From positions 16,833-80,832 of the forward strand of contig DVNT01000007.1 in assembly GCA_018714185.1 (NCBI GenBank): 64,000 nucleotides of DNA, given 5' to 3'. This DNA is from Candidatus Aphodousia gallistercoris. Its GTDB lineage: Bacteria; Pseudomonadota; Gammaproteobacteria; Burkholderiales; Burkholderiaceae_F. Below, piece after piece: positions 24,981 to 41,200 of this stretch (position 1 is its first letter; every line of letters begins with the position of its first letter). The notes under the pieces are model-generated. The model saw only the letters and a program-made list of their open reading frames with translations. It did not search any database and was not told the origin of the DNA. Position numbers and translations under genes: made by a program.

Positions 24981-25140
24981 CATGAACTACCGCGCACTCA
25001 CGTAAGCGGTTTCTTGGGAACGCGTTCCCAATTTTAGCCATTGACGAACATCGGCACTGGCGTGCAGATTTCGAACAACGGCGGGCGTGTCCACTAAGAC
25101 GCCCCCATCGAGTTCGAGTAGCTTTCTCAGCCACTCATCC
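24981..25140 (-). ncRNA. Candidate omega-RNA (reRNA) scaffold overlapping the tnpB 3' end and right end
   Basis: Hairpins GAGTGGCT-GAGAA-AGCTACTC and TTGGGAA-CGCG-TTCCCAA plus terminal ACCGC..GCGGT; compensatory changes in the solo copies. Confidence 0.6.
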
Positions 25141-26354
25141 CCGAGTTCTTTTCGACCTATATTGGCCGCGGCATTGATATCGGCGTTGATCAACTGACCT
25201 TGGGCCGAACGATACAGCCCTCGCTTGATTCGCTTACCGGAAAACACGATTTCAGATCGCGATGACCTTTTATCAACGCTCGGGATCTCATCAAAATCCA
25301 AGGCACTGGCTTTGGACGTGTAACTTTCCTCTCGAACCGTCACCTTAATACCATAGTCTTGCGCCTTATAGCGAATCATCTCCACGAATTTCCCATGAGG
25401 TAACATCACGAAATTCTGATTGTTTCGCTTACCGATATTGACACCTTGTTTCCATTCTTTATTCAGACCAATGACAATGCGCCCCAGATCATGAGCCAAG
25501 CAGAAGTTGACGACCAGGCGGCTTGCCTTGTGTAGTTGATCGTGAAGTCTCCAATAACGCTTTGTGCTTTTGATGCGAATGTGCGAGTGATGCCCCTTGC
25601 TTCGAAGTTCTGCGACTTGTTTGTTGTGGTGTTGGTTGATGCTTTTTAACACTTTGCCCTTGATCAAAAACGGTCTTACCCCGGGTTTGGTCGATACGAA
25701 AGTTGCAAAATTGTCGATGCCCAAATCACAAAACAACGCCTCATTGCAATCCATGCAAACACTCGTCGATAAATTGTCCGCTTCCTCCTTTTTGACCCGA
25801 TAGGTCAATTCCACGATAAACGTATTGCCCATGGGAACAATTCTCAAGTCGCCAGCGACCGCCTCAGTCGCTTTGGCATTGAATGCCTGGTCTTTGCAGC
25901 ATAAAACCGGCATCGGTGAAAAAACAATGTCCTCGCCTGCCGTGATCGTCAGTCGATGATTTCGAATTTGGTAGCCGTTGCGACCGACATAAAATGTTCG
26001 ATACTTTTTCTTGTAGCCCGGCAATTGAGGGCGACCTTGAAACTTTTCCGGATGTTTGTGATACTCAGCCGTCGCCTTGGCAAAAGCCTTGAATTGTTTG
26101 GCAATCACTTGCCCTTGTCTTTGAGCAGAAGCGGCCGAAGGCATCGCCCGATAATCACCAAGATAATGAAGCTTAAGTGCGTCATCGAGCCCTTTTCGGC
26201 TCAGAACCGGTTGCTTGTCAAAGTAACGCTGACGCAACAAATACACGGCGCAGTTGCCGAGCTTGCGCGACAACGAGCAAAGCTTGTGGCAAGCTTGCCA
26301 ATTCCCATCACTTTTTCGAATGACGTGTCGTTCGACTCTTTGAACCATACGCAA
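24987..26354 (-). CDS. tnpB: TnpB-family RNA-guided nuclease (IS605 OrfB)
   Basis: RuvC-I CDLGIDNFATF, IVIGLNKEWKQGVNIGKRNNQNFVMLPHGKFVEMIRYKAQDYGIKVTVREESYTSKAS, RuvC-III NADINAAANIG; TTG start in the track, ATG alternative at 26348. Confidence 0.88.
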   Translation of the reverse strand: MRMVQRVERHVIRKSDGNWQACHKLCSLSRKLGNCAVYLLRQRYFDKQPVLSRKGLDDALKLHYLGDYRAMPSAASAQRQGQVIAKQFKAFAKATAEYHKHPEKFQGRPQLPGYKKKYRTFYVGRNGYQIRNHRLTITAGEDIVFSPMPVLCCKDQAFNAKATEAVAGDLRIVPMGNTFIVELTYRVKKEEADNLSTSVCMDCNEALFCDLGIDNFATFVSTKPGVRPFLIKGKVLKSINQHHNKQVAELRSKGHHSHIRIKSTKRYWRLHDQLHKASRLVVNFCLAHDLGRIVIGLNKEWKQGVNIGKRNNQNFVMLPHGKFVEMIRYKAQDYGIKVTVREESYTSKASALDFDEIPSVDKRSSRSEIVFSGKRIKRGLYRSAQGQLINADINAAANIGRKELGDEWLRKLLELDGGVLVDTPAVVRNLHASADVRQWLKLGTRSQETAYVSAR

Positions 26355-26359
26355 TTTTC

Positions 26360-26581
26360 AACCGGTGCCCATAGGGTCTACAATCTCAAGGCTCACTTGA
26401 TCTTTGTCGTAGCTTATCGCCGAAAGGCTATTAGTTCAAGGATTGAGAGAAATTTTTTCGGAAGTTTGTCAACGTCATGAAGTGTCGCTTTGGAACTAAA
26501 AGTTACTGCGTGATCTCTGTGGGTGACGGAGCAACAACAGCAATCATTGAACAGTACATCAAGGGTCAACAACCGAACTAA
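26360..26581 (+). pseudogene. tnpA: IS200-type Y1 transposase tnpA remnant (frameshifted, internally deleted)
   Basis: N-terminal HRVYNLKAHLIFVVAYRRKAISS and, in another frame, IFSEVCQRHEVSLWN; C-terminal KSYCVISVGDGATTAIIEQYIKGQQPN*; HUH segment missing. Confidence 0.8.
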
Positions 26582-26697
26582 CGTTCGATCGACCGCTATC
26601 CATCCCCGCGCTCACGCACGGGGAATTTCGCGGTATTTGTTAAAATAGGCAAATTGACAACGCCTTGAAGGCGTTTGGTTTTTCAGAGGTTTTTAGC

Positions 26698-29389: not shown

Positions 29390-30382
29390 ATGCCGAAGAC
29401 ATTAGCCTTATACCTTCATGAAATGGAAACGGTTCACCACGTGGATCCCCGCTTGACCGGTTTAATCAACCACTTGGCTGAAACGTGCAAGGAAATCAGC
29501 TTCAAGGTGAGCCAAGGCGCCTTAGCCGGCGTTCTGGGCTCGGCCGGCAGCGAAAACGTCCAAGGCGAAACCCAAAAGAAGCTCGACATCATTTCCAACG
29601 AAATCATGTGCCGGGCCTGCACCGAAAGCGGCTTTGTCAGCGCCGTGGCCAGTGAGGAAATGGACCATGCCTTGCAAGTGCCTGAAAACTGCGAGGTCGG
29701 TCCTTATCTGGTGCTTTTTGATCCCTTGGACGGCTCGAGCAATATTGATATCAATGTGTCCATCGGCACGATCTTTTCCGTTTTACCGGCCGGAGAGCCG
29801 CACCGCGGAGTTGAAGATGCCGAATTCTTGCAATCCGGTCGCCACCAGCTAGCCGCCGGCTACGTCATTTACGGCCCTCAAACCCAGTTGGTGATGACCT
29901 TGGGCTTCGGCGTCATGGTCTTTACGCTGGATTTGTCAACGGGCAATTTCTACCAAACCGCCGAAAACGTGACGATTAGCGAAAGCACGAAAGAGTTTGC
30001 CATTAACTGCTCGAATATGCGGCATTGGGAAGCGCCCGTACAGCGCTACATTATGGAATTGCTTGCTGGGACCACCGGTGTCAGAGGCAAAGACTTCAAT
30101 ATGCGCTGGGTGGCTGCCATGGTCGCCGAAGTACACCGCATTTTGAGCCGCGGCGGTATTTTCATGTACCCGCGTGACAACCGCGATCCGAACAAGCCCG
30201 GCAAATTGCGCCTGATGTACGAAGCCAATCCGATGAGCTGGCTCATTGAACAAGCCCACGGGCGGGCCACCAACGGCTATCAGAACATTTTGGATATTGA
30301 ACCTACGGCATTGCATCAGCGTGTTGCCGTATTCCTCGGGGCCAAAGAAGAAGTCGATCTGGTGACCTCCTATCACGGCTAA
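29390..30382 (+). CDS. fbp: Class I fructose-1,6-bisphosphatase
   Basis: [46 protein letters not shown]. Confidence 0.95.
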
Positions 30383-30393
30383 GCGAGGCGCTT

Positions 30394-30588
30394 ATGGACT
30401 GGCTTGACCTGTTGGCCGAATGGATACTGTTTCCGCTTATAGTGGTCTACGGTTTCGTCAGTTGGGCCAAAGACAATCCGGGCAAGTCTTTGCTTGAGGG
30501 CTTTGGCAAAGAGGATGAAAAAAAGAAAAAGACTCCGGCCGAAGCCTCGGAAAAGAAGCCACCCACTGACAAAACCGATGCCCGATAG
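30394..30588 (+). CDS. Small membrane-anchored protein of unknown function
   Basis: 64-aa ORF close behind fbp: hydrophobic N-terminus plus Lys/Glu-rich tail. Confidence 0.45.
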
Positions 30589-30749
30589 TCCGTGCCGGCA
30601 TGACGCCGGCCGGTCTTTCGCGCCCCCGCATCGTGGCAAAAACTATCAGAACATTAAAAAATTCCGATTGTTTTTTCTACCCTCAGTTCTTATACTCGTT
30701 AGCAACGTCGGAGTCCTGTCGGAGGCCGGCGTGCAGGAGAGAACAAAAT

Positions 30750-32798
30750 ATGTCAAAACACGAATCTTTAGACGTCCGTGTTGCGATCGATGAAGATAAC
30801 CCCGCGTTGGTTCGCAATGAAGCGCTTTGCGTTAATTGCTCCATGTGCCGTCAGGTTTGCGAGGATTACATCGGAGTGCACGGGCACTACCAGCTCGAAA
30901 AAACCGGCGACCGTGCCATTTGCGTGCATTGCGGCCAGTGCATCAATGTTTGCCCGACCGGTAGCCTGTTTGCCCGACCGGAATACCCGGATGTTCAAAA
31001 GGCAATCGACGATCCGCAAGCTATTGTTGTCTTTTCGACTTCACCGGCCGTGCGCGTTGCCTTGGCGGAAGCGTTCGGGGAAGAAGCCGGCGGCTTCAAC
31101 GAAGGCAAGATGGTCGGCTTGTTGCGTGCTCTCGGAGCCGATTATGTTCTCGATACCAATTTCAGCGCTGACTTGACCATTATGGAAGAGGCCAGCGAGC
31201 TTGTTGAACGCTTGACCAAGCACACCGGCCCCTTGCCGCAATTTACGAGCTGCTGCCCGGCTTGGGTGAAATATGCCGAAACTTTCCACCCGGAAATGCT
31301 GGCCAATATTTCGACGGCCAAAAGCCCGATCGGCATGCAAGGCCCTACGGTAAAGACCTACTTTGCCAAACAGCAATCCTTGGACGCGAGAAAGATCGTT
31401 CATGTTGCCGTCACGCCCTGTACGGCGAAAAAATTTGAAATTCGCCGCGAAGAGCTTGCCGGCGCAGCCAAGTTTTACGGCATTGAAGGTATGCGCGATA
31501 CCGACTATGTCATTACGACGACCGAACTCGCCCAGTGGGCCCAAGAAAAGGGCCTTGCCTTTGACAGCATCCAAGATAGCTCCTTTGACCGTCTCATGGG
31601 TGAAGGCTCCGGCGCCGGCGTCATCTTCGGCAACACCGGCGGCGTGATGGAAGCGGCCTTGCGCACGGCCTACTACTTGGTCACCGGCCAAAGAGCACCC
31701 GAATCATTTTACGATCTTGAACCGGTTCGCGGTCTCACGGACACAAAGGAAGCAAGCGTTCAGATCGGCGATCTCACCTTAAAGGTCGCTGTTGTTTACG
31801 GTACGGCCAATGCCGGCCGCCTGATCGAACAGATCCAAAAGGGTGAAAAGCAATACCACTTCGTTGAGGTCATGACGTGCCCGGGCGGCTGCATCAGCGG
31901 CGGCGGCCAACCCAAGCTCAACTGGGGACAAGAAGACAGCACGCGCCAGTTGCGCATTGACGCGCTTTACAAACGCGACAGCGCCATGAGCACTGAACAC
32001 CGTACCAGCTACGAAAACGAAGAAATTAAAGCACTGTACAAAACCTTTTACGGAAAACCGCTTTCCGAATTGGCGGAAAGCCTTTTACACACCCACTACT
32101 TGGACCGTAGCGGGGATTTAGGAGAAAAGAAGATGAAATATCGCTGCAAAGTTTGTGGCTACATCCATGAATGCGAAGGCCCCTTGCCTGCCGACTACAT
32201 TTGCCCGATCTGCAAAAAGGGCGCCGAATTCTTTGAACCGGTTGAAGAAGCCTCCGGCAAAGACGGCAAGTTGGCCGGCACGAAGACTGAAAAGAATTTG
32301 ATGACCGCCTTCGCCGGTGAATCGCAAGCTCGCAACAAGTACACCTACTTTGCTGAAGTAGCCAAGCGCGAAGGATACGAACAAATCGCGGCTATCTTCT
32401 TGCAAACTGCTCGCAACGAGCAAGAACACGCCCGCTTGTGGTGTGATGCCCTCGGCTGGATCGGTGATACGGCGGCCAACTTGGGCGCTGCCGCTGACGG
32501 CGAAAACTATGAATGGACCGACATGTACGACGGCTTTGCCAAGGACGCTGATGCCGAAGGCTTCACGGAATTGGCTGCCAAGTTCCGCGCCGTGGCCGCC
32601 ATTGAAAAGGCTCACGAAGAACGCTATCGCAAGCTTTTGAACAATGTTCAAATGAAGCAAGTGTTCGAAAAAGCCGGCCAAGCCATGTGGGAATGCCGCA
32701 TCTGCGGTCACTTGGTCATGGGCGTTAAGGCTCCGGAAGTGTGCCCGGTTTGCGGCTACGCTCAGAGCTACTTTGAAGTGCGTGCTGAAAACTACTAA
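30750..32798 (+). CDS. [FeFe] hydrogenase fused to rubredoxin-rubrerythrin-rubredoxin modules
   Basis: 2[4Fe-4S] ferredoxin module ([25 protein letters not shown]); H-cluster motifs [33 protein letters not shown]; then [28 protein letters not shown], diiron [10 protein letters not shown] / ARNEQEHA / EKAHEERY, and [26 protein letters not shown]-type RBS before ATG 30750. Confidence 0.93.
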
Positions 32799-35361: not shown

Positions 35362-35427
35362 TAAGTATTCTATTTCCGATTGTTTCGCCCCAAAGTACGC
35401 TCTTGCACAACGTGATAAAATAGGCTT

Positions 35428-35608
35428 GTTCCTGGTAAGCGATAAGTTGCTTTAAGATTCCTTGTTCCAATGCTTATGCACTTAGGTTGCTGGACTTGGG
35501 GCCGGTGGTGGGAGGCACGTGATGCTTCCCCGAAGCCCGCTTCAGAGGCGACCACCCTTGAATCTTCGGACTCAGGATGCAAGGCAACACTTACTGGGAA
35601 CTTTTTTT
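35428..35608 (+). ncRNA. ssrS: Probable 6S RNA
   Basis: About 180-nt rod-like RNA: terminal pairing GTTCCtgGTAAG / CTTACtgGGAAC, internal GTTGC/GCAAC and CCTTG/CAAGG pairing, 3' U7 tract, -10-like TAAAAT just upstream; lies before an EVE-domain gene. Confidence 0.7.
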
Positions 35609-36193: not shown

Positions 36194-36269
36194 GCCGGTT
36201 TAGCTCAGTTGGTAGAGCAGCGCATTCGTAATGCGAAGGTCGGGAGTTCAAGTCTTCTAACCGGCACCA
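36194..36269 (+). tRNA. tRNA-Thr(CGT)
   Basis: 76-nt cloverleaf, anticodon loop TTCGTAA, encoded CCA. Confidence 0.95.
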
Positions 36270-36388
36270 TCTCTTCGAACACGTCCTTTGAGGCGTGTTT
36301 TTTATTTCTCCTTATAGTTTCCCCTGCCCTGCAAGACGAAATAACCTTTCTGTGTTACCCTTCGTTTTTTGCGTTAGCAATTTTTAAC

Positions 36389-36660
36389 AGATGCCGCGAA
36401 ATCCCCTATGCGAAAGCGTGGGGATGGATAGCAGCTATTATTGCTATTGCAAGACTTTCCGAATCCTTGCAATCTTTCTTTTTTCGGAAAAACAAACTCG
36501 GGAATGAGCCGCTCAGAGAGTGGCTCGGACTCGATGGGGGCGTCTTAGTGGACACGCCCGCTGTTGTACGGCATCGGCATGCACGTGCAGATGCCCGACA
36601 ACGGCTAGAAATGGGGGTACGCTCCCATGAAACCGCGTTCGACAGAGCGCGGTAGTTCAT
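36389..36660 (+). mobile_element. Solo mini-element (about 272 bp) derived from the IS605-type element: left end, tnpB 3' fragment and right end
   Basis: AGATGCCGCGAAATCCCC..GGGGATGGATAGC left end after TTTTTAAC; LDGGVLVDTPAVVR coding fragment as in tnpB; right end ACCGCG..CGCGGTAGTTCAT. Confidence 0.85.
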
Positions 36661-36705
36661 GTCGAGACTTTATGGCTATAGGCCTTAAAACAACGCAGGA
36701 CCAGT

Positions 36706-37755
36706 ATGATTGATCTCAGCCACATTTCTCAACGTTTTACCTCGCCCGACGGCAAATCGGTAGATGCAGTCAAGGATGTTTCCCTGCATGTCAATGAGGG
36801 CGAAATTTTCGGCATCATTGGACGTTCCGGTGCCGGCAAATCGACTTTGGTTCGAACCATTAATTTCTTAACCCAGCCAACTGAAGGCACCGTGACGGTG
36901 AACGGACAGTGCCTGAATAATCTCTCGGCGGAAGATCTCAGAACCATGCGTACCAAAATCGGCATGATCTTCCAGCAATTTAATTTGCTCAGCTCCCGAA
37001 CGGTTTTCGATAACATTGCCTTTCCGTTAGAGCTGCATCATGTCGCGCCGGCTGAAATTGAAAAAAAAGTTAACCGTCTGATCGAGCTCGTCGGTTTGAC
37101 CGAGCACAAGAACAAGTACCCTCGGCAACTCTCGGGCGGGCAAAAGCAGCGTGTCGGCATTGCCCGAGCTTTAGCCAATGATCCCATTGTGCTGCTTTCC
37201 GATGAAGCGACCAGTGCCCTGGATCCTGAAACTACCCGATCGACGCTGGAACTTTTGCAGCGCATTAATCAACAGTTGGGCGTTACGATCGTGCTGATTA
37301 CCCACGAAATGGAGGTCGTCAAGCAAATTTGCGACCGCGTTGTCGTCATGGATAAGGGCGAAGTCGTGGAAAGCGGCACCGTCTTGGAAGTCTTTCGCCA
37401 CCCGAAGCATCCGACAACCCGAGCCATGCTCGCTGACGTTGTCATGCACGACATGCCCGAGAGAATTTATGCGACGGTACGCGAGCGCATAGCCCAAGCC
37501 CAAGCAAGGGGGCACATGGCCAAACTGCTTCACTTAACGTTCGTGGGATCGGAAGTCACCTTGCCCGTGCTTTCAATCATGACCCGCCGCTTTTGCATCG
37601 ATTTCAATATCCTTCAGGGACAGGTGGAGGAGTTGAAAGGGACAAGTTTCGGCATGTTAACGATTCTTGCCGAAAGCCCTGATGAAGAAAACTATATGGC
37701 TGCCACGCAATTTCTCAGTGAAAACCAGGTCGATATTGAGGAGGTTCCGCTATGA
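36706..37755 (+). CDS. metN: Methionine ABC transporter ATP-binding protein
   Basis: GRSGAGKSTLVRTINFL, LSGGQKQRVGIARALANDP, C-terminal NIL-like domain. Confidence 0.92.
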   Translation: MIDLSHISQRFTSPDGKSVDAVKDVSLHVNEGEIFGIIGRSGAGKSTLVRTINFLTQPTEGTVTVNGQCLNNLSAEDLRTMRTKIGMIFQQFNLLSSRTVFDNIAFPLELHHVAPAEIEKKVNRLIELVGLTEHKNKYPRQLSGGQKQRVGIARALANDPIVLLSDEATSALDPETTRSTLELLQRINQQLGVTIVLITHEMEVVKQICDRVVVMDKGEVVESGTVLEVFRHPKHPTTRAMLADVVMHDMPERIYATVRERIAQAQARGHMAKLLHLTFVGSEVTLPVLSIMTRRFCIDFNILQGQVEELKGTSFGMLTILAESPDEENYMAATQFLSENQVDIEEVPL

Positions 37756-40957: not shown

Positions 40958-41014
40958 TATTTAAAAATTCGTTAGAATCGAAGAAAGGCCGCACTTAACT
41001 CGGCCTCTTTAACA

Positions 41015-41200
41015 GATGCCGCGGAACTCCCCGTGCGAAAGCGCGGTGATGGATAGCGGCCGGTCGCAAGGCTTGCCAAAATCCTTGCAATCGTTTTTTT
41101 TCGGAAAAACGAACTCGGGTATGAGCCGCTCAGAGAGTGGCTCGAACTCGATGGGGGTACGCTCCCATGAAACCGCGTTCGACAGAGCGCGGTAGTCCAT
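41015..41200 (+). mobile_element. Second solo mini-element (about 186 bp) of the IS605-type family
   Basis: AGATGCCGCGGAACTCCCCGTGCGAAAGCGCGG left end after TTTAAC; GAGCCGCTcagagAGTGGCTC; right end ACCGCG..CGCGGTAGTCCAT. Confidence 0.85.

What the first reader, a model, noticed from the sequence alone, without database searches (positions are those of the whole stretch)
36389..36660. Solo mini-element keeps covarying hairpins of the TnpB omega-RNA
Seen: compared with the full element (25014-25136, minus strand), the solo copy keeps the same hairpins with compensatory changes. GAGTGGCT-GAGAA-AGCTACTC becomes GAGCCGCT-CAGAG-AGTGGCTC (36506-36526; T-A to C-G, G.T to C-G). TTGGGAA-CGCG-TTCCCAA becomes ATGGGGG-TACG-CTCCCAT (36611-36628; T-A to A-T, A-T to G-C). 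The encoded peptide changes (DEWLRKLLEL vs NEPLREWLGL), so pairing is better preserved than protein. A third hairpin GGGCGT..ACGCCC is identical. Inference: the elements conserve a structured RNA, giving TnpB extra guide RNAs in trans with guides read from flanking DNA.
Basis: partly seen in the sequence, partly recalled or inferred. Interest (0 to 1): 0.75.

Follow-up and report, generated by a model that had tools for sequence, protein, structure and literature searches.

The report
Transposase-free mini-transposon carrying TnpB guide-RNA scaffold
A 273-base piece of mobile DNA has lost its protein genes but still carries an intact, base-pair-conserved scaffold for the guide RNA of a nearby RNA-guided nuclease (TnpB), so it may lend that enzyme an extra guide; the RNA shape is well supported by comparison, its use is not.

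Summary
The window carries an IS605-type element (24982-26639, minus; intact tnpB, decayed tnpA) and a solo derivative (36388-36660). Their right ends share one 164-nt, five-hairpin fold. The two copies differ at 35 positions, yet both keep 54 of 54 pairs, six through double changes (null 41.4±2.1, 0 of 5000). On 51 related loci, mostly from 18 related genomes, 43 of 54 pairs show compensatory change (score 0.374; shuffled 0.152, slid at most 0.084). This is a TnpB omega-RNA scaffold, best read as a transposase-free PATE/MITE that kept it.

The solos form an old lineage in two genera, sharing one deletion junction and spacer; within it, pairing was partly kept while pair types changed. Against a function in all copies: solos in P. 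excrementihominis are decayed, two solos in this genome lack the RNA core, and no promoter was found. Trans-guiding is plausible but untested (about 0.5). The TnpB has a relocated RuvC glutamate and no zinc-finger cysteines.

The parts
36388..36660 (+). Solo (transposase-free) IS605-derived element, 273 nt, directly 3' of TTTAA
   Evidence: Left end and right end match the full element; orthologous intergenic regions of seven same-genus genomes lack it; no target duplication
36383..36387 (+). TTTAA, inferred target/TAM
   Evidence: TTTAA or a close variant precedes most copies; an empty site in G001 has TTTAA at the junction of the G003 solo
36403..36423 (+). Left-end subterminal hairpin
   Evidence: Conserved in all solo and full copies
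36430..36496 (+). Solo-specific spacer with an inverted repeat (TTGCAAG..CTTGCAA) and the internal deletion junction near its 3' end
   Evidence: Shared by solos of G000; its 3' part shared with G002 (0 of 1000 shuffles as good); G002 and P. excrementihominis spacers 80% identical; absent from the full elements fetched
36497..36660 (+). Omega-RNA (reRNA) scaffold, 164 nt, with right end
   Evidence: Model R1 186.3 bits; z -6.9; 54/54 pairs
36506..36526 (+).
36538..36559 (+). Helix 3 region, GGGCGT..ACGCCC
36560..36605 (+).
36611..36628 (+). Helix 5
36632..36653 (+). Right-end terminal hairpin
36661..36676 (+). Inferred 16-nt guide from host flank (GTCGAGACTTTATGGC)
   Evidence: Position by analogy with ISDra2 (PMC8612924); only exact copy in the genome is this one. 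Inference
24982..26639 (-). Full IS605-type element
24990..26354 (-). tnpB, 455 aa
   Evidence: NCBIfam NF040570 guided_TnpB 117 bits, over its cut-off; Pfam Cas12f1-like_TNB and OrfB_IS605
24982..25145 (-). Omega-RNA scaffold of the full element, overlapping the tnpB 3' end
   Evidence: 186.1 bits; z -5.4
26377..26581 (+). Decayed, internally deleted tnpA (Y1), divergent to tnpB
   Evidence: tblastn to tnpA residues 1-27 and 99-126 only
41013..41200 (+). Second solo (type B1), lacking the omega-RNA core (helices 3 and 4)
   Evidence: deletion between ATGGGGG direct repeats

Best explanation
The solo is a non-autonomous derivative (PATE/MITE type) of an IS605 element. An internal deletion removed tnpA and nearly all of tnpB but left both ends and a complete omega-RNA scaffold. 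Shown by comparison: the scaffold is a real, conserved five-hairpin RNA fold that ends exactly at the right end, next to host DNA. Inferred: when transcribed, for example by read-through from upstream genes, the RNA takes its last ~16 nt from the 3' flank as a guide; a resident TnpB loads it in trans and cuts the empty site (TTTAA + flank) left when the solo is excised, so that repair restores the element. The solo would thus be kept by borrowing TnpB, and moved by a Y1 TnpA acting in trans.
For: Fold and covariation. Scaffold position and length match ISDra2 reRNA (about 150 nt, tnpB 3' end plus right end, then 16 nt of flank: PMC8612924). Resident intact tnpB of the guided_TnpB family. Solos A1, A2, G002 and the independently formed G003 solo keep 54, 51, 50 and 51 of 54 pairs, against 48 and 45 in the degraded relics C52 and C26. 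A1 and G002 share spacer and junction, so they descend from one solo; 21 substitutions apart, they keep more pairs than random placement allows (3 of 5000). One helix-2 pair is CG, AU or GU in different solos. A1 versus A2 shows 10 nonsynonymous and 4 synonymous changes, consistent with no protein constraint. Several solos sit co-directionally in or after transcription units: A2 between nrdD and nrdG, G003 at the xth stop codon.
Against: No transcript data. No plus-strand promoter found inside or before the solo, and a terminator-like site lies between the upstream tRNA gene and it. A1 versus A2 alone gives no significant excess of kept pairs in the A1-to-A2 direction (513 of 5000). Type B solos lack the RNA core yet occur at two sites; P. 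excrementihominis solos have z -1.0 and -0.1. The closest tnpB-bearing relatives of the solo scaffold are the relics C52 and C26 (weak support), not the window's own intact TnpB element. Mosaicism with tnpB elements could carry pair changes into solos.
Confidence: 0.5

Rival explanations
1. Ordinary MITE/PATE relic: TnpA in trans needs only the two end hairpins; the omega-RNA part is a passenger inherited from the parent and decays with time.
For: Type B solos lost helices 3 and 4 and are at two sites; P. excrementihominis solos are decayed; A1 versus A2 excess of kept pairs not significant in one direction; no promoter.
Against: A1 keeps 54 of 54 pairs and A1/G002, of common solo descent, keep more pairs than chance, with pair-type changes inside the solo lineage. 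Helices 1 to 4 are not known to be needed for ssDNA transposition.
Confidence: 0.38
2. The element acts as a cis-regulatory RNA leader of the downstream gene (metN here), independent of TnpB.
For: It lies about 45 nt upstream of the metN start and is strongly structured.
Against: Absent from the orthologous intergenic region of seven congeners; other copies sit beside unrelated genes; the structure is the TnpB scaffold.
Confidence: 0.04
3. Solo RNA is captured by TnpB but serves as a decoy or regulator of TnpB rather than as a guide for retention.
For: The scaffold would bind TnpB wherever its 3' end falls; compatible with all sequence data.
Against: Nothing specific; no other target adjacent to the guide was sought beyond near-matches to 16 nt, which are at the level of the control.
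Confidence: 0.06

Closest known systems
ISDra2 TnpB-reRNA (Karvelis et al. 2021, PMC8612924)
   Same: RNA of about 150 nt from the tnpB 3' end and right end; guide from the 3' flank; motif at the left end serves as TAM
   Different: Here a copy has lost tnpB and tnpA but keeps the scaffold; TnpB lacks zinc-finger cysteines and has a relocated RuvC glutamate; TAM inferred as TTTAA
PATEs, palindrome-associated transposable elements (Haloquadratum walsbyi genome paper 2011, PMC3119063)
   Same: No inverted terminal repeats, near-terminal palindromes related to IS605 elements, no target duplication, too short for a transposase, some formed by core deletion
   Different: Retains a full guide-RNA scaffold, a feature not discussed in the passages of that paper that were read
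Trans-acting standalone omega-RNA loci of IscB (reported by Altae-Tran et al. 2021; from memory, paper not read here)
   Same: Guide-RNA scaffolds without a nuclease gene in cis
   Different: TnpB rather than IscB; here the scaffold sits in a recognisable mini-transposon with both ends
Ealt TnpBs and Fanzors (PMC10711439)
   Same: RuvC2 glutamate six residues before the zinc-finger position
   Different: Here the zinc-finger cysteines are absent and RuvC1 reads DLG, not DPG

Membership tests
TnpB (RNA-guided nuclease) | Match to curated guided_TnpB model over cut-off | tested here: met
   NF040570 117 bits, cut-off 100
TnpB (RNA-guided nuclease) | RuvC D-E-D triad | tested here: inconclusive
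   D210 and D392 invariant; canonical E position is G296; E343, six residues before the aligned zinc-finger Cys position, is invariant and fits Ealt of PMC10711439; nuclease activity untested
TnpB (RNA-guided nuclease) | Fold similar to TnpB/Cas12f | tested here: met
   Foldseek hits to AsCas12f, ISFba1 and ISDra2 TnpB, E down to 5e-11, but the model is only pLDDT 69 and TM-scores are below 0.5
Omega-RNA / reRNA | Conserved structured RNA overlapping tnpB 3' end and ending at the right end | tested here: met
Omega-RNA / reRNA | Transcribed, with 3' end in the host flank | not testable with these tools
   No RNA data
Omega-RNA / reRNA | Bound by TnpB and guides cutting next to a TAM | not testable with these tools
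   TAM TTTAA inferred only
PATE / MITE of IS605 type | Both ends of an IS605 element, no transposase gene, no target duplication | tested here: met
PATE / MITE of IS605 type | Mobility shown by occupied and empty sites | tested here: met
   Same-genus genomes lack A1 at the orthologous site; G001 empty site for the G003 solo
PATE / MITE of IS605 type | Cognate Y1 TnpA present in trans | tested here: inconclusive
   Own tnpA decayed; the only Y1 match in the 87%-complete genome lies beside another tnpB-like ORF, with no match to these element ends found there

The most novel reading that the evidence does not exclude
The solos are a long-lived lineage of guide-RNA-only transposons: after one ancient loss of tnpB they spread over two genera, are selected to keep a TnpB-loadable scaffold, and exchange their scaffold 3' half with different TnpB subfamilies, living off the nuclease and transposase of other elements.
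Probability: 0.28. Interest if true: 0.75.

Novelty: new variant of a known kind. Interest (0 to 1): 0.52.

Why it matters
It gives a clean natural test of whether TnpB guide RNAs work in trans: one intact TnpB, solos with an intact scaffold (A1, A2) and solos without (B1, B2) in the same genome. If the solos are used, nuclease-assisted retention can be parasitised, and mini-elements with no genes could direct a nuclease to chosen host sites. The 51-locus alignment also supplies a covariance-supported scaffold for a TnpB clade with a relocated catalytic glutamate and no zinc finger.

Tried and rejected
Rfam: no family matches the element; only tRNAs over threshold, plus sub-threshold 6S and ncS54. 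A first version of that script timed out. A loose regular expression for right ends gave mostly noise. PDB search with one TnpB sequence found nothing; the eight-sequence profile did. Co-direction of solos with neighbouring genes was seen but not counted as evidence of selection: numbers are small, and IS605 insertion is known (own knowledge) to be biased by replication direction. The idea that every double change arose in the solo was rejected after comparison with C52 and C26. A coding role for the solo frame was set aside: it is open in A1 and A2 but the A1/A2 changes are 10 nonsynonymous to 4 synonymous, and the G003 solo has a stop. Literature: no held paper found that describes TnpB scaffolds in PATEs, but the library is limited and several key papers are not in it.

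Full report
WHAT IS THERE. The window is contig C41 of a 1.8-Mb, 87%-complete genome. Named relatives brought in by its TnpB are mostly Parasutterella, Candidatus Aphodousia and Sutterella. At 24982-26639 (minus) lies an IS605-type element: tnpB intact (455 aa, NCBIfam guided_TnpB 117 bits against a cut-off of 100), a divergent tnpA reduced to its two ends, a left-end hairpin and a right-end hairpin. At 36388-36660 (+) lies a 273-nt derivative with the same two ends and the last ~170 nt of the parent. Every hairpin in the finding checks out, with the first one of the full copy at 25116-25136.

THE FOLD. The last 164 nt before the right-end boundary fold alike in both copies: a closing stem with helix 2 inside it, helix 3, a long hairpin (helix 4), helix 5 and the terminal hairpin. 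Single-sequence minimum-energy folds, computed apart, agree. z-scores against dinucleotide shuffles are -5.4 (full) and -8.2 (solo); on the 164-nt form -5.4 and -6.9.

COVARIATION. The two window copies differ at 35 aligned positions; 44 pairs are identical, 4 differ on one side, 6 on both, none is broken. Random placement of the same substitutions leaves 41.4±2.1 pairs, never 54 in 5000 trials. A covariance model from 12 copies found matches in 18 of 200 related genomes. On the 51 aligned matches 91.8% of cells pair, 43 of 54 pairs show a double change, and the covariation score is 0.374, against 0.152±0.006 for shuffles and at most 0.084 when partners are slid. The alignment was fitted to the structure, which inflates such figures somewhat, but hardly on this scale.

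WHAT IT IS. The structured segment overlaps the 3' end of tnpB and stops at the right-end boundary, as the ISDra2 reRNA does (about 150 nt, then ~16 nt of flank as guide; PMC8612924). I read it as the omega-RNA/reRNA scaffold of this TnpB family. The inferred TAM is TTTAA: it or a close variant precedes most copies, and G001, which lacks the G003 insertion, has TTTAA at that junction. Seven same-genus genomes lack A1 in the orthologous tRNA-metN interval.

THE TnpB. D210 and D392 are invariant among relatives; the canonical RuvC-II glutamate is a glycine (G296), while E343, six residues before the aligned zinc-finger cysteine position, is invariant. That is the Ealt placement described in PMC10711439. 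The zinc-finger cysteines are missing. Nuclease activity is therefore likely but unproven. The AlphaFold model is moderate (pLDDT 69) and matches Cas12f and TnpB structures by Foldseek; the C-terminal residues encoded by the scaffold region are mostly low-confidence, in keeping with the RNA rather than the peptide being constrained there (inference).

THE SOLO LINEAGE. Copies with both ends and no usable tnpB: A1 (here), A2 (C38), B1 (window 41013-41200), B2 (C21), C18, G002, G003 and two in P. excrementihominis. A1, A2, B1, B2, G002 and both P. excrementihominis solos share the spacer and the deletion junction (3' part of the A spacers against G002: no shuffle of 1000 as good; G002 and one P. 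excrementihominis spacer 80% identical). That points to one ancient tnpB/tnpA loss and a lineage now in two genera. The G003 solo is an independent deletion that kept tnpA's 3' end. The scaffold is mosaic: one P. excrementihominis solo groups with a tnpB-bearing element of another genus in its RNA (bootstrap 95), while A1/A2/G002 sit near the relics C52 and C26 with weak support (58 or less for the deeper nodes).

HAS THE SOLO BEEN SELECTED TO KEEP THE RNA? For: A1 54/54, A2 51/54, G002 50/54, G003 51/54, against C52 48/54 and C26 45/54. A1 to G002: 50 pairs kept where random placement gives 44.0±1.8 (3 of 5000). The helix-2 pair at alignment columns 14 and 45 is CG, AU or GU in different solos, and the pair at columns 223 and 263 is AU in B1 but GC in B2. 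A1 versus A2 shows 10 nonsynonymous to 4 synonymous changes. Against: A1 to A2 taken alone is not significant (513 of 5000); the P. excrementihominis solos are decayed (z -1.0, -0.1); B1 and B2 lost helices 3 and 4 yet occupy two sites. Four of the six double changes between the window copies also occur in C52 and/or C26, so they predate the solo or came by exchange; of the helix-2 changes particular to solos, UA>CG is one step from the UG of other tnpB elements.

EXPRESSION. No plus-strand sigma-70-like promoter was found in 36200-36760, and a terminator-like site lies at 36277-36300 upstream. A2 lies between nrdD and nrdG, and the G003 solo starts at the xth stop codon, both co-directional, so read-through is possible there. 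The 16-nt flank guide of A1 has one exact match in the genome, its own site, and near-matches at the level of the control.

VERDICT. Real and well-supported guide-RNA scaffold in a gene-less mini-transposon; trans guiding plausible (about 0.5), relic MITE the main rival (0.38). New variant of a known kind.

Noticed in passing
L117 (G002:C3, about 29990-32220): The G002 solo lies directly beside a CRISPR array (repeat GAAACACCTCCACGTATGTGGAGAAAAC).
   Followed up: no
L114 (C38): Solo A2 lies between nrdD (with its glycyl-radical C-terminal piece on a separate 66-codon frame, L114:1882-2079) and nrdG, all in one direction.
   Followed up: partly
window 41013-41200: Second solo in the window, with an internal deletion between ATGGGGG direct repeats that removes helices 3 and 4.
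   Followed up: yes
window 35426-35604: Sub-threshold 6S RNA match (29.4 bits, gathering 46.4).
   Followed up: no
L047 (C48): A different Y1 TnpA gene with a divergent tnpB-like ORF; the only Y1 match in this genome.
   Followed up: partly
L062, L075, L082, L084-L086 (G039) and L088, L089 (G055): Contigs end inside the tnpB 3' end, as expected of multi-copy elements breaking assemblies.
   Followed up: no
L051 (Candidatus Desulfovibrio intestinipullorum): A 63%-identical TnpB element with intact tnpA in a record labelled as another phylum: horizontal transfer or mis-binning.
   Followed up: no
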